A stretch of DNA of 64,000 bases from Nocardia brasiliensis (lineage in GTDB: Bacteria > Actinomycetota > Actinomycetes > Mycobacteriales > Mycobacteriaceae): contig NZ_CP046171.1 in assembly GCF_011801125.1 (NCBI RefSeq), forward strand, positions 3,658,001-3,722,000. The letters are read 5' to 3'. Below, piece after piece: positions 18,877-59,313 of the stretch (position 1 is the stretch's first letter; each line of letters starts with the position of its first letter). Below the pieces are notes generated by a model that saw nothing but the letters and a program-made list of their open reading frames with translations, searched no databases and had not been told where the DNA came from. A program made the position numbers and the translations under genes.

Positions 18877-18953
18877 TCGGCTGGGCGAGAACAACACTCA
18901 GCGGTTGTTCGGCCTGGTCGATAGACGTGTGGTTACAAAACGAAGGTAATGCG

Positions 18954-27410: not shown

Positions 27411-27436
27411 GCGGCTGCTCGGAACGGAGAGAGGCA

Positions 27437-29014: not shown

Positions 29015-29031
29015 CGAGGAGAGTGGCGAAC

Positions 29032-29949: not shown

Positions 29950-29950
29950 C

Positions 29951-31741
29951 GTGTCGTTGACCCATCGCATCCGGTCCTACGGGGTCCTCGCTCGGGGCAT
30001 GCTCGAGGGCGCGGGTTCCCATCGCACCCTGGCGTTCGAATTCGAACGCCGCAGTGGGCGACCCGAGCACGCGGCGCAACCGTTCCTGCTCTACGCCGAC
30101 GAGCGTTTCGACTACGCGGAGGCCAACCGCCGGGTCAACCGGATCGCCCACGCGTACCGCGAGGAAGGCCTGGGCAAGGGCGACGTGCTCGCCCTGCTGA
30201 TGGAGAATCGGCCCGAGTTCATCTGGCACTACCTGGCGGCGGGCAAGCTCGGGATCGTCGTGGCCTTCATCAACACCCAGACCAGGGGTGAGGGGTTGGT
30301 GCACGCGCTCTCGGCGTGCGGTGCGAAACAACTGACCGTCGGTTCGGAATGCCTGCCCGCGTTCCTGTCCGTGCGCGAGCGCGTGCCCGCCGATCTGGTC
30401 GAGCGCTGCCGCGTGGTCAAGGACGAAAAGGCCTCCGCCGTGGGCGATGTCGGCGGACTCGTGCGGTTCGTGCCCAGCGCGAACAGCGCCGATCCGCCCG
30501 AGACGGCCCAGCATTCGCTCGCCGACACGGGCGCCTACATCTTCACCAGCGGCACGACCGGCCTGCCCAAGGCCGCGGTGATGAGCTATCAGCGGTTGAC
30601 CTCCGTCGGCCGGGTGACCGGTGCGTTGGCCTGGCGGCTGGAACCGGGCGACGTGATCTACAACTGTCTTCCGCTGTTCCACACCAACGCGCTGGTGATC
30701 GCGCTGTCGAGCGTGATCGCGCACGGCTGCACGCTTGCCTTGGCGCGCAAGTTTTCCGCGAGTGCGTTCTGGCACGACATGCATCGTTACGAGGCGACCG
30801 GGTTCAACTACATCGGCGAGATGTGCCGTTACCTGGTCAACACCGCGCCGACCGAACACGATGTGGGACATCGCATTCGGGTGATCGTCGGCCAGGGTCT
30901 GCAAGCCGATGTCTGGGCGACGCTGCAGGCGCGCTTCGAGATACCCCGGATCGTCGAGCTGTACGCCTCGACCGAGGGCAACATCGCCACGCTCAATCTC
31001 TCCGGCGAGGTCGGCTCGGTCGGCAAGCTGCGCCTGGGCGGCAGGCTGGCGAAGTGGGATTTCGACCGCGACGACTTCGCTCGTGCCGACGGCCGCCTGA
31101 TCGATTGCCGGCCTGGCGAAGTCGGCGTGCTGCTCGGGCCGATTCGCAAGCGCACGCCGTTCGGCGGCTACCGCGACGAACACGCCACGCGCGCGAAGGT
31201 GATCACCGACGCCTTCCGCGAGGGCGACGCCCTGTTCAACACCGGCGACATGTTCCGCATCGACGCGCAGAAGAACCTGTTCTTCGTCGACCGGCTCGGC
31301 GATACCTTCCGCTACAAGGGCGAGAACGTCTCGACCACGGAGGTGCAGGAGCAGCTCGTGCGCTGGCCCGGCATCGCCGCGGCGAACGTCTACGGGGTGC
31401 GGGTGCCGGGCCGGGAAGGCCGCGCGGGCATGGCGGCCATCGTGCTGGCTCGCGGTTCGCGCTTCGACGGTGTGGAACTCGCGTCGTATCTCGACGCGGT
31501 GCTGCCTCCGTACGCGCGGCCGGTGTTCATCCGAGTGTGCGCGTCACTGGAAACCACGGCGACGCTGAAACTGGCCAAACTCGCGCTGCAGCGCGACGGT
31601 TTCACGCCACGGGACGGGGAGCCCATCTATATCCGCGATGCGGGCGAGGCCGCCTACACCGAGCTGACGCCGCAGCGATACGCGGCGCTCATGCGCGACG
31701 AGCGAGCCACCCTGACCCTGGAAAGAACTGAGGGCCAATGA
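29951..31741 (+). CDS. FATP/FadD6-type very-long-chain acyl-CoA synthetase
   Basis: A 596-residue ANL-superfamily enzyme. Core motifs are YIFTSGTTGLPKAAVMS (P-loop), LYASTEGNIA, and NTGDMFRID with FVDRLGDTFRYKGENVSTTEV (adenylate-binding and hinge). The FATP subgroup is indicated by the N-terminal FLLYADERFDYAEANRRVNR and the GENVSTTEV form. These enzymes activate fatty or bile-type carboxylic acids to acyl-CoA. In this operon it could prime the PKS starter or reactivate the TE-released acid for transfer. It starts with GTG one base after the preceding stop, with GGAGG nine bases upstream, and overlaps the hydrolase by four bases. Confidence 0.88.
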   Translation: MSLTHRIRSYGVLARGMLEGAGSHRTLAFEFERRSGRPEHAAQPFLLYADERFDYAEANRRVNRIAHAYREEGLGKGDVLALLMENRPEFIWHYLAAGKLGIVVAFINTQTRGEGLVHALSACGAKQLTVGSECLPAFLSVRERVPADLVERCRVVKDEKASAVGDVGGLVRFVPSANSADPPETAQHSLADTGAYIFTSGTTGLPKAAVMSYQRLTSVGRVTGALAWRLEPGDVIYNCLPLFHTNALVIALSSVIAHGCTLALARKFSASAFWHDMHRYEATGFNYIGEMCRYLVNTAPTEHDVGHRIRVIVGQGLQADVWATLQARFEIPRIVELYASTEGNIATLNLSGEVGSVGKLRLGGRLAKWDFDRDDFARADGRLIDCRPGEVGVLLGPIRKRTPFGGYRDEHATRAKVITDAFREGDALFNTGDMFRIDAQKNLFFVDRLGDTFRYKGENVSTTEVQEQLVRWPGIAAANVYGVRVPGREGRAGMAAIVLARGSRFDGVELASYLDAVLPPYARPVFIRVCASLETTATLKLAKLALQRDGFTPRDGEPIYIRDAGEAAYTELTPQRYAALMRDERATLTLERTEGQ

Positions 31742-37150: not shown

Positions 37151-38038
37151 TCACATTTCCCGAAGGTCGGACAGGGTCAACGAGATGTTGTCGATCAGCC
37201 TGGTCTTGCCGATATGCGCGGCGACCAGCAGCCGGGCCGGGCCTGCCGCGGGTGCGGGCCCGAGATCGGGCGCCCGCAATTCGAGATATTCGACCTCGAC
37301 CCCGGCTGCGGCGTCGAGTACCGCGCGGGCGGCGTCGAGTACCGCGGCGGCTCCCGCGCCGCTCGCGCGCGCCCCCGCGCGCAGCGCCGTCGGTATCGCC
37401 GTCGCCGAGCTCCGCTCGGCCGCGTCGAGGTAGCGGTTGCGTGAGGACAGCGCCAAGCCGTCGGGTTCACGCACGGTCGCGACCCCGACGATCCGGATGT
37501 CGAAGTTCAGATCGTGCACCATCTGCTGAATCAAAATCAGCTGCTGGTAGTCCTTTTCACCGAAGTAGGCGGCGTGCGGCCGGGTGATCTGCAGTAGCTT
37601 GGCCACCACGGTGAGCATGCCGCCGAAGAGCACCGGCCGGGTCGCGCCGCAGAGTTCGGTACCGAGCGGGCCCGGCGTGACGGTGGTCCGCCTGCCGTTC
37701 GGATACATGTCTGCCATGGTGGGCGTGAAGACCGTTCGCACGCCCGCCGCGCGCAGCCGGTCGAGGTCGGTCGCCAGCGTGCGCGGATAGCGGTCGAGAT
37801 CCTCCGAGGCCCCGAATTGTAATGGGTTGACGAAGATCGAGACAATGCACTCGGAATCGTTTTCCTGCGCCTGTTCGACCAATGCGAGATGGCCGTCGTG
37901 TAAGGCGCCCATGGTGGGCACGAAGGTGACCGTGCGGCCCTGTGCCCGCAGCTTCGCGGAAATGTCGGAGATTACCGCGGGATCGTGCTGAACGATCAAT
38001 GCTTCTTGTGCATAATTGGTGGCATCCGGTGGCTTCAA
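37151..38038 (-). CDS. panC: Pantothenate synthetase homologue (pantoate-beta-alanine ligase)
   Basis: A 295-residue enzyme of the PanC family. [18 protein letters not shown] carries the HxGH nucleotide-binding motif, then [33 protein letters not shown] and LSSRNRYL (the KMSKS-like loop). The pantoate and ATP residues thus look intact. The reaction is ATP-dependent amide formation between pantoate and beta-alanine. I chose the TTG at 38038, nine bases after GGAGGGGAG; the frame extends upstream but without PanC-like sequence. In a biosynthetic cluster it may boost CoA/ACP supply or make another beta-alanine-type amide, which the two amide-active partners downstream make worth considering. Confidence 0.9.
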
Positions 38039-38230
38039 CGATTCTCCCCTCCGGTTGGCTCCGAACGCGCTTCGGCAGCCGGAACGGGCGTATGGATAGA
38101 TCACTTCGACGGTACCCGAACAGCGCCCGCAACGCAGCTGTTGACGTAATCGAGATCGGTTGCGGATCAACGATGTTGGTTTCGCTGGACGTCCGCCGAA
38201 ACGTTGCCGATCGTGCGCGCACCGTGATAT

Positions 38231-38246
38231 TGTTCCTTCCGGAACA
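38231..38246. promoter_or_regulatory. Perfect palindrome in the divergent panC/NTF2 intergenic region
   Basis: TGTTCC-TTCC-GGAACA (38231-38246) is a perfect 6-bp inverted repeat with a 4-nt spacer, embedded in an A+T-rich patch (ATAT before, TAAATTAT after) midway between the two divergent operons. It is a natural place for a shared operator; the regulator is unknown. Confidence 0.5.
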
Positions 38247-38318
38247 TAAATTATCGACGGCCCTGGGGAGGGCGCCGGCGATCTGGCATTCTCCGCTTGG
38301 GAATCAGACGGGTACTCA

Positions 38319-38756
38319 ATGGTCATGCATGCGTCAGAAAACACCGGTAACCCGGTTGACGGGAATCCGGCCGATCCGAGTCCGACCGAAATCGAATTTT
38401 TGCAGTGGCGCGCGCTGAGCGCGGGCGACGGCGCTGAATTCTACGATCACGCGACCGCGTCGGACGCCGTGTTCGCGGTGCCCTCTCCACATGCGTCGCT
38501 GTCCCGGCGGATCATGTTGAACGCGGTCGGCGAAGCGCCCCCGATCGAGGCCTATCAGATACTTGAGTTCCACGAGCGATCGCTGGGCCCCGACGCGCAT
38601 ATCGTGTTTTACGAGATGTATCAGAAACGGGTGGGGTTGGACGGTATATACGCTGCTATTTCTACGGTGTATATACGTCGCGACAATCGCTGGCTCATGC
38701 AATATCATCAGCAAACTCCATTGCGTCGGGGATCGGCCGAGGGAGTTTCGCGGTGA
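38319..38756 (+). CDS. NTF2-like/DUF4440-type small protein
   Basis: A 145-residue protein with a cone-shaped NTF2-like fold. An N-terminal helix ([19 protein letters not shown]) is followed by alternating strands ([42 protein letters not shown]). The conserved [16 protein letters not shown] ending is typical of DUF4440/SnoaL-like proteins. These serve as small-molecule binding proteins, isomerases or cyclases in polyketide pathways. The ATG at 38319 or 38325 may be used. The stop overlaps the GTG of the halogenase-like gene, so the two are translationally coupled; perhaps it presents or isomerises that enzyme's substrate. Confidence 0.72.
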
Positions 38757-48386: not shown

Positions 48387-49700
48387 CTATCTGTCGGTGA
48401 CCGGGGTCAGGATCAGGCGGGCACCGCGGGCGGGGACGTTGGTGATGTTGCGGACGCGGCCGGGTTCGGGGGTGCCGGGGAGTTCGAGGCGGTAGCGGCT
48501 GAGCACGGTGCGGAGCACGACCGCGCCCTCCATGAGGGCGAATCCCGCGCCGAGGCACCGGCGCACCCCGCCGCCGAACGGCAGCCAGGTCTGGGGCGTC
48601 ACGTCGCCGTCGAGGAAGCGTTCCGGACGGAATCGCGCCGGCTCAGCGTGATTGGCGGGGTTCTGGTGGGCGAGGGCGATCGAGGTGGAGACGCGGGTGC
48701 CGCGGGGGAGGGCGACGCCGCCGATGGTCAGGTCGCGGGTGAGCTGGCGTTGCACGCGCCCGATCACCATGCGGTGGCGCAGTGCCTCTTTCATCACTGC
48801 TTCGAGGTATTTATCGTCGCCGTCGCGGGCGGCCTGGCGGGCGCGGTCCTGCACCTCGGGCGCGGCAGCCAGTTCGTGGCAGGCCCAGGACAGCGCGGAC
48901 GCGGTGGTCTCGTGCCCGGCGAGCAGCAGCGTGACGAGCTGATCGCGCAGTTCGGCGTCGCTGAGCGGTTCGGTCGAGGGATCGTCACCGGAGCCGACCG
49001 CGAGCAGCCGGGACAGCACATCGGCGTACTGGTCGATGTCGGGATGGCTACGGCGGCGGGCGATCTCGGCGTAGAGCAGCTCATCGATCGCGGTGAGCGT
49101 GTCGGCGAACCGGCGCCACGGCCCGAAACGGCGCAGCCACGGCCATTTCCAGCCGAGCAGCACGACGGGGCTGACCGCGGTGATGCGGCGCAGCTGCGGC
49201 GTCAATTCGGCTCTGCGCTGTTCGTCGGCGACGCCGAACACCACCTGGGTGATCACGTCCAGCGTCAGATCCTCCATGCGCGCGAGGATGCGCTCGGTGC
49301 CGGCGTCCCACCGCTCCACCTGGGTCTTGGTGATGTCCTCGACCAGGGCGCGGTAGCCGCTGAGAGCCGCGCCGGTGAACGCGGGCATGAGCAGCCTGCG
49401 CGCGCGGGCATGTTCGCGACCGTCGGTGAGCAGCACCGAATGCTCGCCCATGATCATCGCCAGTTCCCGATACGCCTCGCCGGCATGCAGATCCGCGGGC
49501 GCGGCGGCGAAGATCTCCTTGATGTGCTCGGCCCGGGAGAACACCACGATGCGGTCCGGGTAGGGCGGCAGCAGCCGCACGGTGAACACGTCGCCGAAGC
49601 GGCGGGCCTGCGCGGTGAGGAATTGCGCGTGCCGCTTGGTGTGCAGCACCGTCTGGAGTAGTCGAGGTAGTCGGGGTGCCGGTGGGTACGCGCCGGTCAT
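48387..49700 (-). CDS. Cytochrome P450 (first)
   Basis: A 437-residue P450 in the CYP110/CYP102-like style with an N-terminal PPAPRLPRLLQTVLH lead. The I-helix is LLAGHETTASAL (AGxET), the K-helix EALRHR (ExxR) and the heme loop PFGGGVRRCLGAGFA with the ligand C382. All three signatures are canonical, so it should be an active mono-oxygenase. It is the last gene of the arginine-type operon and starts in a four-base overlap with the MFS gene. The GGGVRRC form is frequent in P450s that hydroxylate fatty or polyketide chains, but the substrate is not predictable. Confidence 0.92.
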   Translation of the reverse strand: MTGAYPPAPRLPRLLQTVLHTKRHAQFLTAQARRFGDVFTVRLLPPYPDRIVVFSRAEHIKEIFAAAPADLHAGEAYRELAMIMGEHSVLLTDGREHARARRLLMPAFTGAALSGYRALVEDITKTQVERWDAGTERILARMEDLTLDVITQVVFGVADEQRRAELTPQLRRITAVSPVVLLGWKWPWLRRFGPWRRFADTLTAIDELLYAEIARRRSHPDIDQYADVLSRLLAVGSGDDPSTEPLSDAELRDQLVTLLLAGHETTASALSWACHELAAAPEVQDRARQAARDGDDKYLEAVMKEALRHRMVIGRVQRQLTRDLTIGGVALPRGTRVSTSIALAHQNPANHAEPARFRPERFLDGDVTPQTWLPFGGGVRRCLGAGFALMEGAVVLRTVLSRYRLELPGTPEPGRVRNITNVPARGARLILTPVTDR

Positions 49701-50896
49701 CAGGTGGTCCTTTCCGCCGAGTCGGGCTGAGGCCGCCCCGCCGCGCCCGCGCGCCGCGCATAGCCCTCGATGACGACGAAGGCGACCGCGCTGAGCGCTG
49801 CGGCCGCGATCGGCAGGGCGAAGGGACTGAACAACGAGAGGGTGATGCCACCGGCGATGCTGCCGAGGGTGACGCCCAGATAGGTCGACGACGAGTTGAG
49901 GGCCAGCACCTGGGTCGCCGAGTCCGGCGCGGAATCGAGCAGCATGGTCTGCATGGCGGGTGCGTTCCAGTAGAGCGACAGCGACCACACGAGGGTCAGC
50001 AGCACGAGAACCGCCAGCGGGATGGGCGCGAACGCGGTGAGCACGGAGAAGATGACCATCGTGCCGAGGAACAGGCCGAAGCCGATGCGCAGCGCCGCCG
50101 ACGGCCCCTTCTTGTCCACGTAGATGCCGCCGGCGACCGAACCGACCAGACCGGCGACGCCGGCCACCGCGAAGAGCAGACCGCGTTGGCGCAGTGACGA
50201 ATTCGAGAAGTCGGCGGCGAACGGGCCGAAATAGGTGAACATCATCAGCGCGCCGCCGAGCAGAATGGTGTTGCCCAGCAGCACAGTCACCACCGGACGA
50301 CTGGACAACGCCGTGAGATGTGTTCGCGCCGACACCAATTCGCCGGGCTTGTTGAGGTGCGCCCGCACCCCGAACAGCAGCGCCGTCGACAGCACGCTCA
50401 ATCCGGCGAAGACGACGAAGTTGCCGCGCCAGCCGAACACGCTGGCGCACAGCGTGCCGAAGGGCACCCCCACCGCGAGTGCCCCGACGATGCCGGTGGA
50501 CACGATGCCGATGTAGGCACTGCGCTTCTCCGGCGGCGCCAGCATGGGGGCCAGCGCGAACATCGCGGGCAGGCACGCGGCGGCGGCGCCGGCGGCGAGG
50601 ATGCGCAGCACGATCAACTGCCAGAATGAATCGGCCAGGGCGGCCAGCAGATTCGCCACGATGAAGACCGCGGCCGCGCCGACGAAGACGCTGAACCTGC
50701 TGCGCCTGGCGGAGGCGAACGCGATCAGCGGCGCGCCGAGCACCAGTACCAGCGAATAGGTCGAAACGAGCTGTCCTGCCGCGGATTCCGAGATGCCGAG
50801 GTCGGCGGCCAGCTCGGGCAGTACCCCGGCGATCATGTAGTCGTCGGTGTAGAAGACGAACACGGCGAAGGTGATCGCGATCAACCAGAACGGCAT
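49700..50896 (-). CDS. MFS transporter, DHA1-type, probable exporter
   Basis: A 398-residue twelve-helix transporter. DDYMIAGVLPELAADLGISES in helix 1 and loop, RILAAGAAAACLPAMFALAP in helix 4-5, and GIVGALAVGVPFGTLC resemble the DHA1 drug:H+ antiporter group. It is encoded inside the biosynthetic operon between a dehydrogenase and a P450 gene, so export of the product and self-resistance are likely. ATG start 23 bases after the dehydrogenase stop; four-base overlap with the P450 gene. Confidence 0.88.
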   Translation of the reverse strand: MPFWLIAITFAVFVFYTDDYMIAGVLPELAADLGISESAAGQLVSTYSLVLVLGAPLIAFASARRSRFSVFVGAAAVFIVANLLAALADSFWQLIVLRILAAGAAAACLPAMFALAPMLAPPEKRSAYIGIVSTGIVGALAVGVPFGTLCASVFGWRGNFVVFAGLSVLSTALLFGVRAHLNKPGELVSARTHLTALSSRPVVTVLLGNTILLGGALMMFTYFGPFAADFSNSSLRQRGLLFAVAGVAGLVGSVAGGIYVDKKGPSAALRIGFGLFLGTMVIFSVLTAFAPIPLAVLVLLTLVWSLSLYWNAPAMQTMLLDSAPDSATQVLALNSSSTYLGVTLGSIAGGITLSLFSPFALPIAAAALSAVAFVVIEGYARRAGAAGRPQPDSAERTT

Positions 50897-50919: not shown

Positions 50920-51876
50920 TCAGGGGATGAGCAGGTCCGGGGCGATCGCGGCGGGGTCGATGCGCAGCGACCGCTCGCTCATTGTCGATCGATCCGGGGT
51001 TCCCGTGGCGAAGATCACCGTCCAGTCCCGGTGATACAGCGGATCACCGTCCCAGGGCCGCCACGCGATGTGCGGGGTCAGCGTGACCCGGCCCTTATCG
51101 ATCCACGGTCGCAACAGTTCGGCCCGCTCGGCGGTTTCGACGTCGCTGGTGAGCCGTCCGGTCCCGGCCGAGAGCCAGCGCAGCAGTGCGTCGGGGTCGA
51201 CCGGGGCGCAGCGCGCCGGATTGATCAGGTGCCCGTCGTCGCGCAGCAGGGCGAAGAGGGTGTCGTCGAGGAAGTTCACCAGCTCGGGCAATCCGGGCAG
51301 CGCGACGACCATCAGGTGCGCGTCGCGGCGGGGGAGCCGATCCAGCGGCATCGCCGTCGCCGCGTCGTCGAGCGGGTGCGCGGTCGCCGACCGCGGGCGG
51401 ATCACGGTGACCTGTGCGCCGAGCCCGGCCAGCGTGTGCGCGACGGTGCGTCCGAACGCGCCGTAACCCACCACCAGCGTGGTACGCCGGTGAAACGGCT
51501 TCGGCATGTCCGCGAATGTGTCCGCGGCGCAATGCAAGACCTGCTGGGTGACGACGTACTCCGCCAGCGAGGGAGCGTAGGCCCGCGCACTGCGGGTGAC
51601 CAGATTGTCGCGCGCGAGCTCGTCGACATGCGGATATCCGGGTGCGGAGGAGACGAGATGCACCCAGCATTCCCTTGTCGCGGCGGCGGTTTCGGCCAGC
51701 TCAGCGGCGGAGAGGTCGTGGGCGGCGAGGGCGAGCATCTTGCGGGTGAGCGGGGTGCCGGGCCGCACCGGTTCGATGCCGACCCGCTGCCGGCGCAGCG
51801 CGCCGGCGACGGCGGCCGGGTCGGTGGACGCTCCCAGACAGTACAGCGTCGATCGATCCACCGTGACGGCGCGCAT
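50920..51876 (-). CDS. D-isomer-specific 2-hydroxyacid dehydrogenase-like protein
   Basis: A 318-residue protein. The NAD Rossmann motif is VVGYGAFGRTVAHTLAGLG at mid-length, then a conserved NPARCAPVDPDALL segment (normally N-xx-R-G-xx-V-D-xx-AL) and a C-terminal TLTPHIAW with the catalytic-type His. The N-terminal lid domain is shortened and divergent. Such enzymes interconvert 2-oxo and 2-hydroxy acids; a 2-oxo acid is exactly what the PLP oxidase of this operon should make from arginine. ATG at 51876 overlaps the P450 stop by three to four bases. Confidence 0.78.
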   Translation of the reverse strand: MRAVTVDRSTLYCLGASTDPAAVAGALRRQRVGIEPVRPGTPLTRKMLALAAHDLSAAELAETAAATRECWVHLVSSAPGYPHVDELARDNLVTRSARAYAPSLAEYVVTQQVLHCAADTFADMPKPFHRRTTLVVGYGAFGRTVAHTLAGLGAQVTVIRPRSATAHPLDDAATAMPLDRLPRRDAHLMVVALPGLPELVNFLDDTLFALLRDDGHLINPARCAPVDPDALLRWLSAGTGRLTSDVETAERAELLRPWIDKGRVTLTPHIAWRPWDGDPLYHRDWTVIFATGTPDRSTMSERSLRIDPAAIAPDLLIP

Positions 51877-53186
51877 CAGCGTCCGTCGGTCAACGCCAGT
51901 GGCACGCGGATATGGCCGTGCAGCACCACCGAGTCCCGCCATTGCCTGCCGGGCAGCAGCCGGGCATCAGGATAGGCGGTGAGGAAGCTGCCGACCGCCA
52001 CCTGCCCCTGCACCTTCGCCAAAGACGCGCCGAGACAACGGTGTACGCCGGTGGAGAAGCTCATGCTGGTGCGTGCCGCCACGTTGGCGACATCGAGACG
52101 ACCCGGGTCCGGATAGGCGCGCGCGTCGTAGTTGACCGCGCCGACCCAGATCAGCGCGCCGGTGCCGGGCGCGACCACCCGGTCACCGATCTTGGTCTCG
52201 ACCCGCGCGGTGCGGTGCGTCAGCTGGATGGGGGAGTCATAGCGCAGCAACTCCTCGAACCACGGGTCACTCAACCGGCCCTGGTCGAGCACCTGGTCGC
52301 CGAGACCGTGTTCGAGCACGGTGACAATGGAATTCGCGATGAAGCTGACCGTGGTCTCGAACCCGGCCGCGAAGACGAAGCCGACCAGGGTGAGCAGTTC
52401 CGGGAAGGTCAGCTCGCCTGCCAGGTGCATGTGCACGCAGTCCTTGAGAAACCCGTCGCGCAACTGGTCCGGGTCGGTGCGGCAGTCCAGCACGAAGTCG
52501 GTGAACTTGCGCGCCACCGTCATGCCGCGCCGATAGTCCGGATAGGTGATCCCGACATCGAGCAGTTTGGCGCCGTGCCCGCCGAGCGCGTCGAGCATGT
52601 CCTCGCCGAGATCGGGGATGCCGAGGAAGTCCGAGATCACTCGGATGGGGATCTTGCGGGCGAAATCCGCTACCAGGTCGATGCTTTCGCGGCCATCGAG
52701 TTCGGCGAGCACCGCTTCGGTGTGGCCGGTGATCACGTCGATCGACGCGGTGACCGCGCGATGGGTGAACATCGGGAACACCAGTTTGCGTAACCGGGTG
52801 TGCTCGGGCGGGTCCATGAACACCAGGGCGGGCGCGTCGAGGGCGATCGGCACCGACCGGCGGGTGAGCCAGCGGTAGAGCCCCGCGGCGGGCGGAATCG
52901 CCACCGGCTGGTCGGCGGACCAGTCGTTGCTGCGCAGGATCTCTTCGCTCTCCTCGTAGCCGGTGACCACCAGCCCCGCGGCGCTGTCGTGCACGCCGGC
53001 GTCGGCACCGACCTTGGTCAGCAGTGTCCGGTACGGGTCGCCCTTTTCCGGCGGTCGCAGGAACAGCCTGCCCACATCGTTGCCGTCGCCGAGCATCGAG
53101 TCGGGCAGCAACCGCAGCGGCCCGTGTAGGAGAAACCAGCGAATCGGATCAGTGACCACCGAGCTCACGGAGGACAACGTCGACAC
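51876..53186 (-). CDS. Cytochrome P450 (second)
   Basis: A 436-residue bacterial class I-type P450. I-helix FAAGFETTVSF, K-helix EELLRYDS (ExxR), PPEHTRLRKLV C-helix and the heme loop SFSTGVHRCLGASLA with Cys at about 384. The loop reads FSTGVHRC where most have FGxGxHxC; the first Gly is replaced by Ser. It resembles CYP105/107-style tailoring enzymes. The start is uncertain: GTG at 53186 overlaps the GNAT gene by 38 bases, and a TTG at 53177 or GTG at 53168 are alternatives. It probably hydroxylates or desaturates the operon product. Confidence 0.9.
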   Translation of the reverse strand: MSTLSSVSSVVTDPIRWFLLHGPLRLLPDSMLGDGNDVGRLFLRPPEKGDPYRTLLTKVGADAGVHDSAAGLVVTGYEESEEILRSNDWSADQPVAIPPAAGLYRWLTRRSVPIALDAPALVFMDPPEHTRLRKLVFPMFTHRAVTASIDVITGHTEAVLAELDGRESIDLVADFARKIPIRVISDFLGIPDLGEDMLDALGGHGAKLLDVGITYPDYRRGMTVARKFTDFVLDCRTDPDQLRDGFLKDCVHMHLAGELTFPELLTLVGFVFAAGFETTVSFIANSIVTVLEHGLGDQVLDQGRLSDPWFEELLRYDSPIQLTHRTARVETKIGDRVVAPGTGALIWVGAVNYDARAYPDPGRLDVANVAARTSMSFSTGVHRCLGASLAKVQGQVAVGSFLTAYPDARLLPGRQWRDSVVLHGHIRVPLALTDGR

Positions 53187-53826
53187 CCCCTTGTCGTTTC
53201 ATTGCGGCATAGAAGTTTTCGCGTTCGAAGCGGAACAGCGCGGCCTGCTTGTGCGGCAGGTCGATCTCGCCCAGTTCGTGGCCGTCCACCACGGTGCAGA
53301 CGCTGCGGTCCAGCGCGCGCACCAGTTGATTGGCCGCCGACGGGTCCGAGATCACGCCCGTGCACTCGGGATAGGTCTCGAAGACACCGGCGATTAGCGC
53401 CACCCAGAACGGCAGCGCGTATCCGAAGTAGTCGGGTTCGCCGATGCAGCCGTGCATGCCCATATCGCGATCCGGGGTGTCGTAGTAGTCGGCGACGACA
53501 TCGAGCGCGACGCGATAGAGCTCGACGTATCCGCCGTGCCGGCCGCCCTGCCCGACGAGGAAGGGCCGGGTCTTGTTGTCGGAGAACTGGAATTCGATCT
53601 CGGTCTGCCAGCCGTCGCGATCCCAGTCTTTGTGCATCGCGAACTGTACGTGCGGCCGCGCCATCCACTCGACCACCTGGTCGATCTCGGCGGCGGTGCT
53701 CGGTGTCACCGGGGTGAGCTCCCACGGCCGCGGCAGCGTCGGCACCTGCCATTCCTGAAAGGCAAAGTCGGTCAGCGGTGTTCCGCGCCGTCGGGATCGG
53801 TCGATGGGTACTCGCCTGCTTGCCAC
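53149..53826 (-). CDS. GNAT-fold acyltransferase of the IucB/MbtK siderophore type
   Basis: A 225-residue protein of the Acetyltransf_8 family. Family blocks are IDQVVEWMARPHVQFAMHKDW, YVELYRVALDVVADYYDTP, DMGMHGCIGEPDYFGYALPF and ISDPSAANQLVRALDRS, ending HELGEIDLPHKQAALFRFERE. Known members acylate the side-chain amine or hydroxylamine of lysine-type siderophore precursors (aerobactin, mycobactin). The CoA-binding turn, usually G-x-G-like after GEP, is degenerate here (FGYALPFW). No siderophore synthetase is nearby, so acylation of an arginine/ornithine-derived amine is more likely. GTG start four bases after the ATP-grasp stop. Confidence 0.75.
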   Translation of the reverse strand: MASRRVPIDRSRRRGTPLTDFAFQEWQVPTLPRPWELTPVTPSTAAEIDQVVEWMARPHVQFAMHKDWDRDGWQTEIEFQFSDNKTRPFLVGQGGRHGGYVELYRVALDVVADYYDTPDRDMGMHGCIGEPDYFGYALPFWVALIAGVFETYPECTGVISDPSAANQLVRALDRSVCTVVDGHELGEIDLPHKQAALFRFERENFYAAMKRQGGVDVVLRELGGH

Positions 53827-53829
53827 TGC

Positions 53830-54969
53830 TCACCCCGCATTCGCGACTGCCAGGAGTTCGAGCGCGGTCAGGACGGCCTCGGTGCGGCCGCTGAGCCGGG
53901 CCCGCCCGCCGAGGCGGATGTGATCGAATGTCGCGTCGACGGGCAGGTGCGCGATCCGGTCGGCGCCCTCGATCGCTCTGCCGACGCGCCACAGCCAGCC
54001 GCCGGATGCCTCGTGATCCACCTTCGGCTCGGACCAGTCGAGCCCGGCCTGGATCCGGAGATTGAGCAGCTCGAGATCGGTGCCGGTGATGATTCTGGAC
54101 TGGAACGGCACCTCGCCGCCGGAGGCCCGCGCGCACACCTCGCTGACCACCACATCGGCGAAGGCCGGTCCGCTGGAGAGGTATTCCACGTGCGCGGTGA
54201 ACGTGCCGTCGAGCCCAAGCGCGGTGCAGGTGCGGATCGCCAGGTCGGCCAGCTCAGCCTCCAGCTCGGGTGCGACCCTGGCCGAGCCGGAGGGCCCGCC
54301 GGTGGTCAGATCCAGCAGTGAGCGGATGTAGAGACCCGAGAACAGATGCGTCACCGTGCCGTTCACCACGAGCACTTCCGAATGGTACTGCGGGCCTTCG
54401 AGCAGTCGCTCGATCAGGCCGTCGCCGAGCGCGGCCGGATCGACCGCGGCGAACTTCTCGATCCGGATGCCGCGCAGATTGGCCTCCGCGGCGGGTTTGA
54501 CGATGACGAGCTCGTCGTCGCCGAAGCCGGGATGACCAGCGGTCGACTCGACCGCGCCCGCGGTGACGATCAGCGACTCGGGCACCGGGATGGCGGCCGC
54601 CTCCAGCGCGCGCCGCATCCGCCCCTTGTGCCGGTAGTTCTCCAGCGAGCCGGGCACCGGACTCGCCAGCCCGCGCTCGCGGCACAGCTGTGCCGCGAGG
54701 CCGAGCAGGTATTCGTCGTTGGTCACGATCGCGGTCGTGCCCGCCGGGATCAGGGCCTGCCATGCGGCGAGCTCGGCGATGTGCTGGTCGCCGAGGTCGT
54801 CGAGGGTCACTTCGGCATCTCGGACCAGCGGTACCTCGCCGGTGCGCAGAATCCGCAGTTCGGCGCCCGCCGCCGCCACGGCCGCGCCGAACTCGGCGAG
54901 CCCCTCGCTGCCGAGCGACTGCTTTGCCTGGAGCAGGACCACCGTCGCGCGCTCACCTGATGACAACAC
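53830..54969 (-). CDS. ATP-grasp carboxylate-amine/thiol ligase
   Basis: A 379-residue ATP-grasp protein. A pre-ATP-grasp N-terminal domain (about 1-110) is followed by SLENYRHKGRMRRALEAAAIPVPES (entry helix), ELVIVKPAAEANLRGIRIEK (ATP-binding Lys and glycine loop), QYHSEVLVVNGTVTHLF (metal/ATP strand) and FTAHVEYLSSGPAFADVVVSEVCARASGGEVPF (Glu/Asn metal ligands). This resembles the BtrJ/carnosine synthase-like group that activates an acid as acyl phosphate and joins it to an amine or a carrier thiol. Its partner could be the N-terminal ACP of the divergent PKS. GTG start inside the aminotransferase gene. Confidence 0.82.
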   Translation of the reverse strand: MLSSGERATVVLLQAKQSLGSEGLAEFGAAVAAAGAELRILRTGEVPLVRDAEVTLDDLGDQHIAELAAWQALIPAGTTAIVTNDEYLLGLAAQLCRERGLASPVPGSLENYRHKGRMRRALEAAAIPVPESLIVTAGAVESTAGHPGFGDDELVIVKPAAEANLRGIRIEKFAAVDPAALGDGLIERLLEGPQYHSEVLVVNGTVTHLFSGLYIRSLLDLTTGGPSGSARVAPELEAELADLAIRTCTALGLDGTFTAHVEYLSSGPAFADVVVSEVCARASGGEVPFQSRIITGTDLELLNLRIQAGLDWSEPKVDHEASGGWLWRVGRAIEGADRIAHLPVDATFDHIRLGGRARLSGRTEAVLTALELLAVANAG

Positions 54970-56071
54970 GCCTCCATGCCTCTAGGTGCTGGTCGACGCG
55001 CTGGCAGCCCGTGACGACGGCTTCCGGATCGCGTGCCAGCGATATTCGGATCAGGTCGGTGCCGAGATTCGGCTGCTCCCAGTAGAACAGCTCGCCGGGC
55101 AGGACGTGTACCCCGGTCTTGCCTAGCTCGGTGTACAGCGCGTTGGCCGTGACACCGTCGGGCAGCCGGAAGGTGTCGACCGAGATCCGCGAGTCCGGAT
55201 AGGCCGGGGGCAGTTTGATGTTGTCGCGGGCGAGTGTCCGGTTGCGCCGGATGTCCTCGCGCAGTTGGTCGTAGCCGCCGTGCCTGCCGTCCTCGGCGAA
55301 CAGCTCGATGACGCGCAAGATGAACGGCGACGCCGAGAGCATGTGGTCGGAATACATCCGCGCCAGCGCGAGCGGGTTGGTCGCGTTCCAGTTGAGGAAG
55401 CCCGCCTTGAGTTCCTGCAGGGGCCAGAGCTTTCCGGTGTCCTCGATGATCACCCAGTCCAGGTCGTGGCGGCCGAGCACCGCGTACATGTCGTACTGCG
55501 CGCGCGGATCCTGTGCCCGGAAGCACGAGTCGATGACCAGGACCGTGCCGCGCTCGGCACACGCCGTCGCGATCTCGTGCAGCCGGTCCGCGTCGAGCAC
55601 GGTGCCGGTCGGGTTGTTCGGCGAGACGATGAACAACACCCCGTTCGGCGGGGGTATCCCGTCGAGTGGCCCACGCACCAGGGCGGTTTCGGCCACCGAG
55701 CGGATGCGCAGGCCGTGCCCGGCCAGCAGGTCGTGCAGGTTGTCGAAGGTGGGCTCGACCATGGCCACGGGGCGACCGGCGAGCCGGATCGCCTTGCCGA
55801 TCATGTCGATCGCGGTGGAGGAGGAGTAGCAACTGCGAAAGCTGACCTCCTCGGCGAGGCCGCTGTGCTGGCCGATCGAGGAGAGGAACGCGGCCCGCGC
55901 GCTCTTCTCGACCACGTCCACCGGCAGCTTGCGGGTGTGCGCGAAGACCTCGGGGAAGGCCGCGACGATCTCGGATTGAGTGGTGGACAGCGACATTCGC
56001 GGATGCCCGTCGGACAGGTTGACCCCGTCGACGAGCGCCCTGACCTCGAGGTCGGTGATGTTGTCACGCAT
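54953..56071 (-). CDS. MppP/RohP-like PLP-dependent L-arginine oxidase/hydroxylase
   Basis: A 372-residue fold-type I PLP enzyme that looks like an aminotransferase but matches the oxygen-using arginine enzymes MppP (enduracididine) and RohP (azomycin). The N-terminal helix NITDLE keeps the Thr and Glu (T6, E9) needed in MppP, followed by SDGH, whose His is also part of the MppP site. FRSCYSSSTAIDM and VEPTFDNLHDLL match the PLP and substrate pocket. IEDTGKLWPLQELKAG carries the Schiff-base lysine K214 with the adjacent Asp (D211) required for hydroxylation. Expected products are 4-hydroxy-2-ketoarginine and 2-ketoarginine. A longer start at 56083 is possible. Confidence 0.85.
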   Translation of the reverse strand: MRDNITDLEVRALVDGVNLSDGHPRMSLSTTQSEIVAAFPEVFAHTRKLPVDVVEKSARAAFLSSIGQHSGLAEEVSFRSCYSSSTAIDMIGKAIRLAGRPVAMVEPTFDNLHDLLAGHGLRIRSVAETALVRGPLDGIPPPNGVLFIVSPNNPTGTVLDADRLHEIATACAERGTVLVIDSCFRAQDPRAQYDMYAVLGRHDLDWVIIEDTGKLWPLQELKAGFLNWNATNPLALARMYSDHMLSASPFILRVIELFAEDGRHGGYDQLREDIRRNRTLARDNIKLPPAYPDSRISVDTFRLPDGVTANALYTELGKTGVHVLPGELFYWEQPNLGTDLIRISLARDPEAVVTGCQRVDQHLEAWRRVVIR

Positions 56072-57044
56072 GCAGACGACCATCCTGTTGTATCCGGGTC
56101 CGCCGGGCGGCCGCGGCGAGCGCCATGATCTCGAAGATCACCGCGACGCCGAGATGCGCCGTGATGTCGGCGGAGTCGTACGGCGGCGAGATCTCGACCA
56201 GCGAGACCGTCTTGATGTTCGGCAGGTCGAGCTCGCGCAGCAGGCGCAGGGCGAAGGCCGATGACGGCCCGCCGACCTCGGGGGTGCCGGTGCCCGGCGC
56301 GCACGACGGATCGACGAAGTCGATGTCGAAGGTGAGCGCGACCGGGTTCGCGCCGACCTTGTCCCGCGCGATCCGCCCGAGTTCGGCGCAGCCGAGCGAG
56401 AGTGCCTCGTCGCTGTGGATCACGGTGAATCCCATGCCGTCCGGGGCGAGATCCTCGCGCGGCACGCTGCCGCGCATGCCGATCTGCACGCTGGTGGCCG
56501 GGTCGATCAGACCTTCGTCGACCGCCCGGCGATAGACCGTGCCGTGGAAGTGCTCGACCCCGAAATAGTTGTCGAGCACATCCCGATGCGCGTCCAGCTG
56601 GACCAGCGAGAGCGGCCCGTGATGGCGTGCGGCCGTGCGTAATTCGGCGATGGCGAGGCTGTGGTCGCCGCCGACCAGGATCGGCAGCGCGCCGATCCGG
56701 TGCACCGCGTCGACGCCCTGTTCGATCAGGTCGAGGGTCTGTAGGTGATAGCCGGGGATGATGTGCACGTCACCGCCGTCGACCACCGAGAGCAGGTCGG
56801 TGATCACCAGGTCGCGTTCGCGGCTGCCCAGCCGGGCGAGCGTGCTCGCGGCGCGCACCGCCTCGGGGCCGAAGCGGGCGCCGCTGCGATAGCCCGTCGC
56901 ACCGTCGATCGGCACCCCGAGAATGACGGCGTCGACGCCGTCGGCCTCGGTGAGCTCGCGCACGGGCCGATACGGGAGCCGGAAGAAGGTGCGCGGGCCC
57001 GAACTCAACCGGGAGACCGCTTGGCTGTCGGTGTAATCAGTCAT
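56064..57044 (-). CDS. Arginase/agmatinase-family amidinohydrolase
   Basis: A 326-residue ureohydrolase with a complete dimanganese site: LVGGDHS, VQLDAHRDVLD (DAHxD) and LTFDIDFVDPSCAPGTGTP (DxDxxDPxxxPGTGTP). The N-terminal GVPIDGATGYRSGARFGPEAVR is typical of agmatinase-like rather than arginase proteins. It should hydrolyse a guanidine to amine and urea. Next to an arginine oxidase and a ketoarginine methyltransferase, the substrate is likely a modified guanidino acid or a late guanidino intermediate, as with proclavaminate amidinohydrolase. It overlaps both neighbours by eight bases. Confidence 0.92.
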   Translation of the reverse strand: MTDYTDSQAVSRLSSGPRTFFRLPYRPVRELTEADGVDAVILGVPIDGATGYRSGARFGPEAVRAASTLARLGSRERDLVITDLLSVVDGGDVHIIPGYHLQTLDLIEQGVDAVHRIGALPILVGGDHSLAIAELRTAARHHGPLSLVQLDAHRDVLDNYFGVEHFHGTVYRRAVDEGLIDPATSVQIGMRGSVPREDLAPDGMGFTVIHSDEALSLGCAELGRIARDKVGANPVALTFDIDFVDPSCAPGTGTPEVGGPSSAFALRLLRELDLPNIKTVSLVEISPPYDSADITAHLGVAVIFEIMALAAAARRTRIQQDGRLHA

Positions 57045-58059
57045 CGTGGGAGTCCTTGGATCGCAACAGGATTGCCGTCACGATCCCGGTCTCGTCGAGG
57101 CCGGGCGTGTCCACGTCCTCGGCGACCACCTCGAGCCCCTCGCTGTCGAACAGATCGAGCCAGTACCGCTTGGTCGCCAGGCGCTGATCGGTGAACGGGT
57201 GCAGCAGGAAGTAGTGGTTGTAGTAGTTGGTCCGGTGCGGGTCCTTCATCAGTTCCGCGTCGTCCCAGCAGTAGTCGATATCGATGACGAGCAATTCCAG
57301 TCCGGGATTGTTGTCGAACAGGGTGCGCAGGAACTTGCGGACACCGGGTTCGCCCTCCTGCCCGAGGATCTCGTGGATGACGAAGCTGATGATGCCGAAG
57401 TCGTAGTGCGACTCGGTGTGCTCGAGGTGGCCGATCGCATCCGCGTTCACGATGTCGATGCGGTCCGCGTGCAGCGAACCAGTGACGAATTCCACTGCGG
57501 CCGCGGCCCCCTCGGGGCTCGGCTCGATGCCGGTGAGCCGCATCAGCGGATACTTCTCGGCCAGCGTGGTCAGAAAGATGCCGCTGCCGCAACCGAGGTC
57601 GATGCCGCTGCGGTAGGTCTTACCGCGTTGGTCGAGCACCCGGTACATCAATGGGATCGCGTCGTGCACGCTGATCGCGCAGCTGCCGACGCCGACCATG
57701 CGGCCGTCCCTCGGCACCGCGGCGGGGTCGGTGAAACCCTGGCCGATCTCGAGGAAGGTCCGGCCGTAGCCGCCGATCATCATCTGGTACCAGCCGCGGG
57801 CCTCCCAGATTCGCACCAGCTTGTCGGTGGCGTGATCGTCCTCGGTGTATCCCGCGGTGCGCAGGAACAAGCGCAGCGCCTCGACCCGTTCCGGCGTCGT
57901 CACGACCGACTCCAGCGCCTCGGTGGCCGAACTGCCGTTCACCACGATCTGTTCGAGTACCCCGTGTTCGATCAGGTTGTACAGCACTGCTGACTGGACG
58001 AATCCGCTGAACGGTTCCAGCGCTTCGATCAGGCGATTCCGGGTGAGCATGTCGTTCAT
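57037..58059 (-). CDS. 2-Ketoarginine-type alpha-keto acid C-methyltransferase (MrsA/MppJ-like)
   Basis: A 340-residue SAM methyltransferase with an N-terminal helical domain and a Rossmann core (GIDLGCGSGIFL). Its distinctive blocks are GGYGRTFLEIG, MVGVGSCAISVHDAIPL, GIEPSPEG, VIHEILGQEGEPGVRKFL and YYNHYFLLHPFTDQRL. They match the family containing MrsA (2-ketoarginine methyltransferase of 3-methylarginine biosynthesis) and MppJ (phenylpyruvate C-methyltransferase); the two His of HEILG and related positions bind iron in MppJ. Adjacent to an arginine oxidase, it probably methylates C3 of 2-ketoarginine or its hydroxy form. Confidence 0.85.
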   Translation of the reverse strand: MNDMLTRNRLIEALEPFSGFVQSAVLYNLIEHGVLEQIVVNGSSATEALESVVTTPERVEALRLFLRTAGYTEDDHATDKLVRIWEARGWYQMMIGGYGRTFLEIGQGFTDPAAVPRDGRMVGVGSCAISVHDAIPLMYRVLDQRGKTYRSGIDLGCGSGIFLTTLAEKYPLMRLTGIEPSPEGAAAAVEFVTGSLHADRIDIVNADAIGHLEHTESHYDFGIISFVIHEILGQEGEPGVRKFLRTLFDNNPGLELLVIDIDYCWDDAELMKDPHRTNYYNHYFLLHPFTDQRLATKRYWLDLFDSEGLEVVAEDVDTPGLDETGIVTAILLRSKDSHDD

Positions 58060-58086: not shown

Positions 58087-59313
58087 TCAGCCAGCGGCGA
58101 GCCGATCGGGATCACCGACGAATGCGAGTTCGTATTTGGTCTGCCGATATCCGTATGCCCCCGAGGACAGGTTCGTGAACAGCGTCCAGTCGGAAAGCCG
58201 AGGTGCGACCGGCAGCAGGCCCCGCCCGCTCGTGCGACCGGGCTTCGGGCAGATGAGGTCCAGTCCGGCGATCTGGGACAGCAGCGTCGTCGCGCCCTCG
58301 ATGCGCTCGGTGAAGTTCCCGATGCCCTGCAGCAGCGTGGTGCGCTCGGCGGCCCAGAAGCCGTAGCGCTCATCGAAGCTCGCCGACTCCAGCGCGGCGG
58401 TGAAATCCCGCTCGGTACTGGTGGCGAAGCGGTGCAGCTTGGCAAGGAGCACCGCGGGTTCCTTCGCCGAGGTCGGCCCGCCGTCGAGGACCCGCTGCGC
58501 GAGTTCGTGATACATCCGCGCCTTCGCCGACATCCGCGCCAGCGCCTGCACCCAGGCCGGGTGGGTCATGCCGGTGCGGGCACGGAACATATTGCATCGC
58601 TCGACCGAACCGTCGATGAAGACCTGGGCGTTGGGCACGAACGCGTGGTCGAACTCGATGATCGCGTCCTGTTCGTCCAGCACATCGATCGACTCGTCCG
58701 CAAGCTCGTGTGCCCCACGGAAACCCGGGCGCGCGTGCACCGTCACGCCGTCGGCCTCCGGTGCGACGGCGACGCAGAGCGCGGTATCCGCCTCGGCCTG
58801 CGTCAGCATGCGATAGGGGTAGACGAGCAGCACGTCGGCGTAGGGCGCGAGGGTGGCCAGCTGCTTGAAACCGCTCAGATAGATGCCGTCGGAATCACGG
58901 TCCACGACCCTCAGCAGATGACGCTCGGAAATGCGCCCTCGTTCCGAGATATCGGAAATCGCATGAGTGAGGATCGAATTGGCGGCGCGGCAGGCGCGAT
59001 GGAACTCGCGCACCCGCTCGGCATTCTCGCCGAAATGCGTGGCATTCGCCGCCCAGGCGGAGACGATGCCCGCGAGGAAATCGGGGCTGCGGCCGAGGAG
59101 GCCGCCGCTGTGCGCGGCGAATCTGCGCAGTTGTCCGGCGTATTCGAGGAATTGATCTCTGGTCGCAGGCGGCGTCCAGATGCAGTCCCAGAACAATTTC
59201 AGTTCCGGATTGGTCCGCAACCCGTCCAAGGTCTTCGCAAACGGCGTGCGATCCGTCTCCGCGAGCGCGGCGGAAATGCTGTCGGTCGTGGAGGTGATCT
59301 GCTGAGTTTCCAA
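58087..59313 (-). CDS. HpaB-family FADH2-dependent monooxygenase
   Basis: A 408-residue acyl-CoA dehydrogenase-fold oxygenase of the 4-hydroxyphenylacetate 3-hydroxylase (HpaB) type. HSGGLLGRSPDFLAGIVSAW is the family signature near residue 70. FDHAFVPNAQVFIDG marks the central barrel and a four-helix C-terminal domain follows. At 408 residues it is shorter than typical HpaB (about 480-520). The family uses FADH2 from a separate reductase, absent here, to hydroxylate aromatic rings or, in some pathways, nitrogen. It is the first gene of the ten-gene operon. The HpaB assignment comes from the signature; the substrate is unknown. Confidence 0.8.
   Translation of the reverse strand: METQQITSTTDSISAALAETDRTPFAKTLDGLRTNPELKLFWDCIWTPPATRDQFLEYAGQLRRFAAHSGGLLGRSPDFLAGIVSAWAANATHFGENAERVREFHRACRAANSILTHAISDISERGRISERHLLRVVDRDSDGIYLSGFKQLATLAPYADVLLVYPYRMLTQAEADTALCVAVAPEADGVTVHARPGFRGAHELADESIDVLDEQDAIIEFDHAFVPNAQVFIDGSVERCNMFRARTGMTHPAWVQALARMSAKARMYHELAQRVLDGGPTSAKEPAVLLAKLHRFATSTERDFTAALESASFDERYGFWAAERTTLLQGIGNFTERIEGATTLLSQIAGLDLICPKPGRTSGRGLLPVAPRLSDWTLFTNLSSGAYGYRQTKYELAFVGDPDRLAAG

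What the first reader, a model, noticed from the sequence alone, without database searches (positions are those of the whole stretch)
50920..58059. Arginine-tailoring cassette: MppP/RohP-like oxidase, ketoarginine methyltransferase, amidinohydrolase and 2-hydroxyacid dehydrogenase in one operon
Seen: the aminotransferase-like protein keeps the N-terminal T and E (NITDLE), the SDGH His and the DTGK block that distinguish O2-using MppP/RohP enzymes; the methyltransferase has the GSCAIS...DAIPL, EPSPEG and HEILGQ blocks of MrsA/MppJ; the ureohydrolase metal site is complete. Known: MppP/RohP turn arginine into 4-hydroxy-2-ketoarginine, and MrsA methylates 2-ketoarginine at C3. Inference: the operon makes a methylated and/or hydroxylated 2-keto (then 2-hydroxy) acid, loses urea to give an amino acid that could cyclise to a pyrroline, and passes it to the ATP-grasp ligase and PKS. 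I know of no described cluster with this combination.
Basis: partly seen in the sequence, partly recalled or inferred. Interest (0 to 1): 0.88.

Follow-up and report, generated by a model that had tools for sequence, protein, structure and literature searches.

The report
Arginine-remodelling gene cassette in Nocardia
A block of genes in a Nocardia bacterium, also found as a six-gene unit in some Streptomyces, appears to oxidise, methylate and strip the guanidine group from the amino acid arginine to make an unusual building block for an unidentified natural product.

Summary
A tightly packed minus-strand operon encodes an MppP/RohP-family PLP oxidase, an MrsA-type keto-acid methyltransferase, a guanidino-acid ureohydrolase and a 2-hydroxyacid dehydrogenase-like protein; in these four every catalytic residue checked is kept.

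An ATP-grasp ligase and an HpaB-like flavin oxygenase belong to the unit: all six genes recur side by side in 3 of 392 sampled Streptomyces, at 30-51% identity, beside a differently built NRPS/PKS. In Nocardia, 10 of 118 genomes have the methyltransferase, and the same ten carry the close PLP orthologue about 1 kb away. The divergent cluster is syntenic in 9 of 9 Nocardia loci. Aminotransferase partners of the two nearest known pathways (MppQ, MrsB) are not found at the cassette.

Best reading: arginine becomes a C3-methylated, probably C4-hydroxylated, de-guanidinated keto or hydroxy acid, then joined by an amide bond. Order of steps, final structure and the HpaB substrate are not shown. Ten paper searches (one useless) listed no cluster with this set. 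New variant built from known enzyme families.

The parts
58087..59313 (-). HpaB-like flavin-dependent oxygenase (cassette member); first gene of the operon
   Evidence: HpaB_N 114 bits; motifs GRSPDF and LTHAISD kept; the residue aligned with Tyr104 of T. thermophilus HpaB is Phe in 13 of 13 cassette members
57037..58059 (-). MrsA-type alpha-keto-acid C-methyltransferase (cassette member)
   Evidence: TIGR04543 257 bits, below cut-off; 2-ketoarginine methyltransferase 8r4z 179 bits; H229 and H287, taken to be the metal histidines, kept in 13 of 13 cassette members and in MrsA
56064..57044 (-). Ureohydrolase (guanidinobutyrase/proclavaminate amidinohydrolase type; cassette member)
   Evidence: Pfam Arginase 249 bits; GbuA/PAH/GpuA 204-210 bits; six metal-ligand positions kept in 13 of 13
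54953..56083 (-). MppP/RohP-family PLP- and O2-dependent arginine oxidase (cassette member)
   Evidence: MppP 251 bits; T12, E15, D27, H29, D188, D218, K221, R352 (MppP numbering) kept in 13 of 13 cassette members; tree
53830..54969 (-). ATP-grasp ligase, fold closest to L-amino acid ligases (cassette member)
53149..53826 (-). GNAT N-acyltransferase, Acetyltransf_8, MbtK-like (in the Nocardia cluster; no match in the Streptomyces stretches read)
   Evidence: Acetyltransf_8 87 bits; Rv1347c/MbtK 75-80 bits
51876..53186 (-). Cytochrome P450 (a)
   Evidence: p450 55 bits
50920..51942 (-). 2-hydroxyacid dehydrogenase-like reductase (cassette member); likely start at the invariant Met23, coordinate 51876
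   Evidence: 2-Hacid_dh_C 73.5 bits; R244 and H291 invariant and an acidic residue at 272 in 9 of 9 aligned Nocardia proteins
49700..50896 (-). MFS-type exporter, named from the sequence by eye and not scanned against Pfam
   Evidence: ORF; syntenic in 8 of 8 Nocardia loci long enough to show it
48387..49700 (-). Cytochrome P450 (b)
   Evidence: p450 218 bits; 7 of 8 Nocardia loci long enough, one of them cut by the contig end; not found in L049
59781..63998 (+). Divergent PKS (ACP-KS-AT-KR-ACP), continuing past the window into L009 to position 5329; followed there by 3HCDH, ACP, acyl-CoA dehydrogenase, FkbH-like (by eye), thioesterase, phosphopantetheinyl transferase and FAAL-like ligase
   Evidence: Pfam; ORFs; PKS to FkbH-like syntenic in 9 of 9 Nocardia loci

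Best explanation
A six-gene arginine-remodelling cassette inside a PKS-type biosynthetic cluster. Proposed route, each step marked. (1) The MppP-family enzyme oxidises L-arginine with O2 to a 2-keto acid, most likely 4-hydroxy-2-ketoarginine (family and residues shown; activity inferred, about 0.7 for 4-hydroxylation). (2) The MrsA-type enzyme methylates C3 of that keto acid (family and histidine pair shown; substrate inferred, about 0.8 for an arginine-derived keto acid). (3) The ureohydrolase removes urea and frees the C5 amine (class shown; timing inferred, about 0.6 before assembly). (4) The 2-hydroxyacid dehydrogenase-like enzyme reduces the 2-keto group, holding the chain open as a 5-amino-2-hydroxy-3-methyl(-4-hydroxy)pentanoate (inferred, about 0.5). 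(5) The ATP-grasp enzyme, with an L-amino-acid-ligase-like fold, makes an amide bond with it (fold shown; reaction and partner inferred). (6) In Nocardia the MbtK-like GNAT puts an acyl chain, perhaps the PKS product, on the freed amine; in Streptomyces FemAB-like proteins may take that role (inferred). (7) The HpaB-like enzyme hydroxylates an unknown intermediate. The confidence below is for the general claim, that these enzymes together turn arginine into a methylated, oxidised, de-guanidinated building block; the exact structure would get about 0.35.
For: Family and residue evidence. Recurrence: all six genes contiguous and on one strand in three Streptomyces (G868, G754, G780; 3 of 392 sampled) at 30-51% identity, beside an NRPS/PKS scanned in G868. 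Syntenic in 9 of 9 Nocardia loci. In Nocardia the ten genomes with the methyltransferase (of 118) are the same ten handles with the close PLP orthologue (76-100% identity, of 116). Cassette-labelled PLP rows form one group apart from MppP/RohP/7n79 (1 change, SH-aLRT 81). Metal-bound enolisation of alpha-keto acids by a methyltransferase of this class (SgvM): PMC10502145 passages. MppP and RohP products: PMC7497351 and PMC10367076 passages. ATP-grasp fold. GNAT to MbtK; FemAB-like in G868 and G754.
Against: No metabolite or assay. Both equivalog models are missed by wide margins. PLP is 39% identical to MppP and the methyltransferase 33% to MrsA, far enough for a substrate change. The review passage gives MppP itself mixed products (2-ketoarginine and an unsaturated keto acid), so 4-hydroxylation is not assured. 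HpaB enzymes normally act on phenols, which the scheme does not explain, and the HpaB model was unusable (pLDDT 54). The PLP grouping has only 81 support; 59 of the 81 rows in that group were not labelled, and of the 22 labelled rows three are duplicates, five were labelled by shared contig length alone and most of the ten Nocardia ones by orthology. PurK-type ATP-grasp enzymes score nearly as well as the lower-ranked amino acid ligases. The DH could reduce something else.
Confidence: 0.74

Rival explanations
1. Cyclic route: after urea loss the C5 amine closes on the 2-keto group to a 3-methyl(-4-hydroxy)-1-pyrroline-2-carboxylate, which is reduced to a methylproline or loses water to a 3-methylpyrrole-2-carboxylate; the HpaB-like enzyme then hydroxylates the electron-rich ring or enamine.
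For: Gene set allows it: keto acid former, keto-acid methyltransferase, ureohydrolase and an HpaB-type oxygenase with the Arg and His of HpaB kept. The chemistry of ring closure and dehydration is recalled, not from a call.
Against: No dedicated ring reductase or aromatase recognised in the cassette; the cassette DH resembles open-chain 2-hydroxyacid dehydrogenases; GNAT or FemAB-like amine acyltransferases beside the cassette suggest that the amine stays free.
Confidence: 0.33
2. Protecting-group route: the guanidino group masks the amine during assembly, and the ureohydrolase removes urea only at the end, as DstH does in desertomycin.
For: Published precedent in a PKS pathway (PMC4737276, abstract and opening text); the ureohydrolase is close to guanidino-acid hydrolases, not arginase.
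Against: In the window, the nine Nocardia loci and the three Streptomyces the ureohydrolase gene lies between methyltransferase and PLP genes, fitting an early step, though order proves nothing; its nearest solved relatives are named for small guanidino acids. DstH itself was not compared.
Confidence: 0.25
3. A variant of a known pathway: 3-methylarginine (MrsA/MrsB) or enduracididine (MppP/Q/R).
For: Best matches are MppP and 2-ketoarginine methyltransferase. The cassette PLP itself misses the MppP cut-off, so a diverged MppQ or MrsB elsewhere in the genome could miss its cut-off too: sub-cut-off aminotransferase matches occur in 7 of 7 genomes and 14 of 14 controls.
Against: No MppQ (TIGR04461) or MrsB (TIGR04544) match over cut-off in 7 cassette genomes searched (of 13 known here), and none at the cassette except the PLP enzyme's own 21-28 bit match to the MrsB model. 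Both pathways keep the guanidino group, whereas the cassette carries a ureohydrolase with complete metal site in 13 of 13. MppR was not searched.
Confidence: 0.06
4. The methyltransferase and PLP enzyme have drifted to another substrate (for example a different alpha-keto acid), and the resemblance to arginine enzymes misleads.
For: Only 39% and 33% identity to MppP and MrsA; both miss the equivalog cut-offs.
Against: An arginine-type PLP site, a 2-ketoarginine-type methyltransferase and a guanidino hydrolase together, in two genera, point at one guanidino substrate.
Confidence: 0.15

Closest known systems
Mannopeptimycin enduracididine pathway (MppP, MppQ, MppR)
   Same: PLP oxidase closest to MppP (39% identity), all checked active-site residues kept
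   Different: No MppQ-family match at the cassette and none over cut-off in 7 genomes; methyltransferase and ureohydrolase present; guanidine would be lost, not cyclised
3-Methylarginine pathway of Pseudomonas syringae (MrsA, MrsB)
   Same: Methyltransferase closest to MrsA among solved structures (33% identity; histidine pair kept)
   Different: No MrsB over cut-off; the keto acid would come from an O2-dependent PLP oxidase; ureohydrolase follows
Azomycin RohP and mildiomycin MilM type arginine oxidases
   Same: Arginine to a 4-hydroxy-2-keto acid is the assumed first step (MilM as a putative arginine oxidase: PMC11784345 passages)
   Different: RohP is more distant (30%); those pathways have, as far as recalled, no C3 methyltransferase plus ureohydrolase
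Desertomycin amidinohydrolase DstH and clavulanic acid PAH
   Same: Ureohydrolase class in a secondary-metabolite cluster
   Different: No PLP arginine oxidase or keto-acid methyltransferase partner recalled for either; PAH acts on a beta-lactam precursor (recalled)
Pyrrolysine pathway (PylB/PylC/PylD)
   Different: PylB makes it from lysine by radical SAM chemistry (recalled); here carbon and methyl would come from arginine and SAM

Membership tests
MppP/RohP PLP-dependent arginine oxidases | Groups with MppP/RohP rather than ordinary aminotransferases | tested here: met
   (a single HisC-like outgroup row on a very long branch; the tree used the best 120 of 685 homologues)
MppP/RohP PLP-dependent arginine oxidases | N-terminal Thr and Glu, SDGH His, DTGK block, Schiff-base Lys, carboxylate Arg (roles recalled) | tested here: met
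   13 of 13 cassette members
MppP/RohP PLP-dependent arginine oxidases | O2-dependent turnover of L-arginine | not testable with these tools
   Needs purified enzyme
MppP sensu stricto (TIGR04462 equivalog) | Score over curated cut-off 450 bits | tested here: not met
   234.6 bits; cassette PLPs of 7 genomes 235-345 bits
Metal-dependent alpha-keto-acid C-methyltransferases (MrsA/SgvM/MppJ) | Two metal-binding histidines | tested here: inconclusive
   A histidine pair, H229 and H287, is kept in 13 of 13 and in MrsA. That it is the pair H244/H296 of SgvM (PMC10502145 passages) is by motif and recall; SgvM was not aligned
2-ketoarginine methyltransferase (TIGR04543 equivalog) | Score over curated cut-off 425 bits | tested here: not met
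   256.6 bits
Guanidino-acid ureohydrolases | Complete binuclear metal site (ligand roles recalled) | tested here: met
   Six ligand positions in 13 of 13 and GbuA
Guanidino-acid ureohydrolases | Substrate is a methylated guanidino keto or hydroxy acid | not testable with these tools
   No substrate-bound model made
D-2-hydroxyacid dehydrogenases | Arg/acid/His catalytic triad with NAD-binding domain | tested here: met
   R244, acidic 272 and H291 in 9 of 9 Nocardia proteins (positions assigned from recalled motifs); 2-Hacid_dh_C; the catalytic-domain model PF00389 did not match
L-amino acid ligases (ATP-grasp) | Structure closer to amino acid ligases than to other ATP-grasp enzymes | tested here: inconclusive
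Enduracididine pathway | MppQ partner gene at the cassette | tested here: not met
   0 of 7 genomes over cut-off; no listed match within 20 kb of the cassette (nearest, G754, 38 bits, about 22 kb from the PLP gene)
3-Methylarginine pathway | MrsB aminotransferase partner gene at the cassette | tested here: not met
   0 of 7 genomes over cut-off; the only matches at the cassette are the PLP enzyme itself at 21-28 bits
HpaB flavin monooxygenases | Phenol-binding Arg/Tyr/His (roles recalled) | tested here: inconclusive
   Arg and His kept, Tyr replaced by Phe in 13 of 13; model unusable

The most novel reading that the evidence does not exclude
A previously undescribed, portable route from arginine to a C-methylated pyrroline/pyrrole carboxylate or omega-amino hydroxy acid, independent of carrier-bound proline or lysine chemistry, shared as a six-gene module between differently built PKS/NRPS assembly lines in Nocardia (including the N. 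brasiliensis group) and Streptomyces.
Probability: 0.4. Interest if true: 0.78.

Novelty: new variant of a known kind. Interest (0 to 1): 0.62.

Why it matters
It would join three known arginine reactions (O2-dependent PLP oxidation, alpha-keto-acid C-methylation, guanidine hydrolysis) into one transferable module and predict a building block that no pathway known to me gives. It marks orphan clusters in Nocardia and Streptomyces that share a searchable six-gene signature, and each step can be tested with small enzymes.

Tried and rejected
Ordinary aminotransferase for the PLP enzyme: rejected. Enduracididine or 3-methylarginine as product: disfavoured, with the limits told under the rival. 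RNA element in the window: none over Rfam's thresholds. HpaB-like fold: model pLDDT 54, not searched. ATP-grasp sequence relatives beyond Nocardia: the homologue search gave 20 hits at E 1e-5 or better; every one with a species name is Nocardia; the Streptomyces ones came from neighbourhoods. Wider survey: the methyltransferase family model over 396 phylum genomes gave a strong match only in the window's own genome (256 bits, next 53.5; weak matches in 286 of 396 genomes and in 8 of 14 controls are general methyltransferases). The alignment A1 over 394 class genomes hit 3 including the window's own, over 392 Streptomyces 5; G659 and G830 and G566 lack the cassette in the 20-35 kb read. Five further PLP/MT pairs outside Nocardia (P0030/P0138, P0028/P0140, P0023/P0146, P0020/P0154, P0054/P0155) share a contig length; those contigs were not opened, so linkage there is inferred.

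Papers: ten searches. One search was useless (the term MRSA fetched staphylococcus papers). No title or abstract listed describes a cluster with this combination; one search listed 25 of 79 papers and 20 of 1,598, and most subscription-journal papers are not in the library, so absence is weak. Seen: passages of PMC7497351, PMC10502145, PMC11784345, PMC9309667, PMC10367076; abstract and opening text of PMC4737276; other papers only as listings.

NRPS adenylation code in Streptomyces (first A domain reads as serine-like) was judged by eye against recalled codes.


Full report
What is there. The window is bases 3658001-3722000 of a 7.95 Mb single-contig genome. The nearest named loci are Nocardia brasiliensis and N. 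vulneris, at 93-94% for the methyltransferase, so it is taken to be a Nocardia close to them. On the minus strand, ORFs from 59313 down to about 48387 follow one another with overlaps or gaps of at most 27 bases: HpaB-like, methyltransferase, ureohydrolase, PLP enzyme, ATP-grasp, GNAT, P450, 2-hydroxyacid dehydrogenase-like, MFS-type, P450 (the MFS name is by eye). On the plus strand a divergent operon starts at 59781 with a PKS and runs past the window into a 3HCDH, an ACP, an acyl-CoA dehydrogenase, an FkbH-like protein (named by eye), a thioesterase, a phosphopantetheinyl transferase and a FAAL-like ligase. The 3HCDH/ACP/acyl-CoA dehydrogenase/FkbH set resembles genes for hydroxymalonyl- or methoxymalonyl-ACP; that reading is recalled.

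PLP enzyme: MppP 251 bits, RohP entry 152, 7n79 122, then a gap to 31 bits or less for all other solved proteins. In a 128-row tree it sits among MppP-type proteins, far from the HisC-like outgroup (one outgroup row on a very long branch). Residues T12, E15, D27, H29, D188, D218, K221 and R352 are kept in 13 of 13 cassette members (window, nine Nocardia, three Streptomyces). Their roles are recalled; in the printed alignment one PDB entry of MppP differs at position 15. Methyltransferase: nearest solved relative is 2-ketoarginine methyltransferase. SgvM, of the same class, holds its metal with two histidines (PMC10502145 passages); a histidine pair, H229 and H287, is kept here in 13 of 13 and in MrsA, and I take it to be the same pair by motif and recall, since SgvM was not aligned. 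Ureohydrolase: nearest to guanidinobutyrase, proclavaminate amidinohydrolase and guanidinopropionase (204-210 bits), far from arginases (69 bits or less), metal-ligand positions complete in 13 of 13. Dehydrogenase: NAD-domain match and a conserved Arg, acid and His. Against this, the two equivalog models are hit well below their cut-offs, and identities to the characterised enzymes are 39% (MppP) and 33% (MrsA). They are relatives, and the substrates are inferred.

Is the set a unit? Yes, and larger than stated. In nine named Nocardia loci the gene order is the same: HpaB, methyltransferase, ureohydrolase, PLP and ATP-grasp in 9 of 9 (ATP-grasp cut by the contig end in L047); GNAT, P450a, DH and MFS in 8 of 8 loci long enough; P450b in 7 of 8 (cut in L041, not found in L049); PKS to FkbH-like in 9 of 9. 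Of 118 sampled Nocardia genomes 10 have the methyltransferase at E 1e-40. In a 116-genome sample the close PLP orthologue (76-100%) is in 10, and they are the same ten handles, about 1 kb from the methyltransferase; eleven more Nocardia have a 31-42% PLP relative and none of them has the methyltransferase at that threshold. Outside Nocardia, three Streptomyces (3 of 392 sampled; identical protein records name S. caelestis, S. hygroscopicus subsp. hygroscopicus and strain ISL-10) have six genes contiguous and in one direction: DH, ATP-grasp, HpaB, methyltransferase, ureohydrolase, PLP, at 30-51% identity. In G868 they lie beside an NRPS (A-T-C-A-T), a PKS, an ABC transporter and a FemAB-like gene by Pfam; a FemAB-like gene was also scanned in G754; in G754 and G780 the NRPS/PKS is seen by tblastn only. 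GNAT, P450a and the FkbH set gave no match in the 20-35 kb read. G659 and G830 (of the 392) and G566 (class sample) have a methyltransferase match without the cassette in the stretch read; in G830 and G566 an HisC-like aminotransferase is next to it or fused with it (by eye). So the recurring unit is six genes, with different assembly lines attached.

Which pathway? MppQ and MrsB families reach their cut-offs in 0 of 7 cassette genomes searched, no MppQ match lies within 20 kb of a cassette, and the cassette PLP is the only strong MppP-family hit in each. This is not proof of absence: the cassette PLP also misses its family's cut-off, and sub-cut-off aminotransferases ring in all seven genomes and all 14 controls. 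Still, with no such partner at the cassette, the keto acid most likely goes on as a keto or hydroxy acid. MppP and RohP form a hydroxylated keto acid, with 2-ketoarginine and an unsaturated keto acid also reported for MppP (PMC7497351 and PMC10367076 passages). A 2-keto acid has an acidic C3 for methylation. Urea loss then frees the C5 amine, which either closes to a pyrroline (rival 1) or is kept open by reduction of the ketone and acylation of the amine (main reading). The alternative that urea leaves last has a published precedent, DstH (PMC4737276 abstract). Sequence cannot decide among the three.

Novelty. Every enzyme family is known; the combination was not found in the paper searches listed under Tried and rejected, which cover only open-licence papers. 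I score it as a new variant of a known kind. Interest is fairly high because the cassette is conserved across genera, keeps its active sites, predicts an unusual unit and can be tested with a few enzymes; it is held down by the lack of any product.

Noticed in passing
SnoaL, TPR and ABC transporter names are by eye.
   Followed up: partly
window 37151-38344 (-): An extra pantothenate synthetase (PanC)-like gene; the genome has another at 544227-545069 (66% identity) and a match with three in-frame TGA at 3779815. A PanC-like (43%) and a TauD-like (41-46%) gene also lie some 12-16 kb from the cassette PLP gene in Streptomyces G754.
   Followed up: partly
L009 5113-11915 (genome, beyond the window): 3HCDH, ACP, acyl-CoA dehydrogenase and FkbH-like genes for a hydroxy- or methoxymalonyl-type extender unit, with no O-methyltransferase recognised among them, then thioesterase, PPTase and FAAL-like ligase.
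   Followed up: partly
PKS starting at window 59781 (+), full length in L009 482-5329: The acyltransferase domain has GYSLG where GHSxG is usual.
   Followed up: no
window 18825-31741 (+): A second, single-module PKS with dehydratase, C-methyltransferase, enoylreductase, ketoreductase and thioesterase domains, plus an AMP ligase at 29951-31741.
   Followed up: no
L068 3138-8738 (Streptomyces G868): NRPS A-T-C-A-T beside the cassette; the first A domain reads as serine-like against recalled codes.
   Followed up: partly
G659 and G830 methyltransferases (L066, L073): Relatives without the cassette have Gln at the position of H229, perhaps a different metal use.
   Followed up: no
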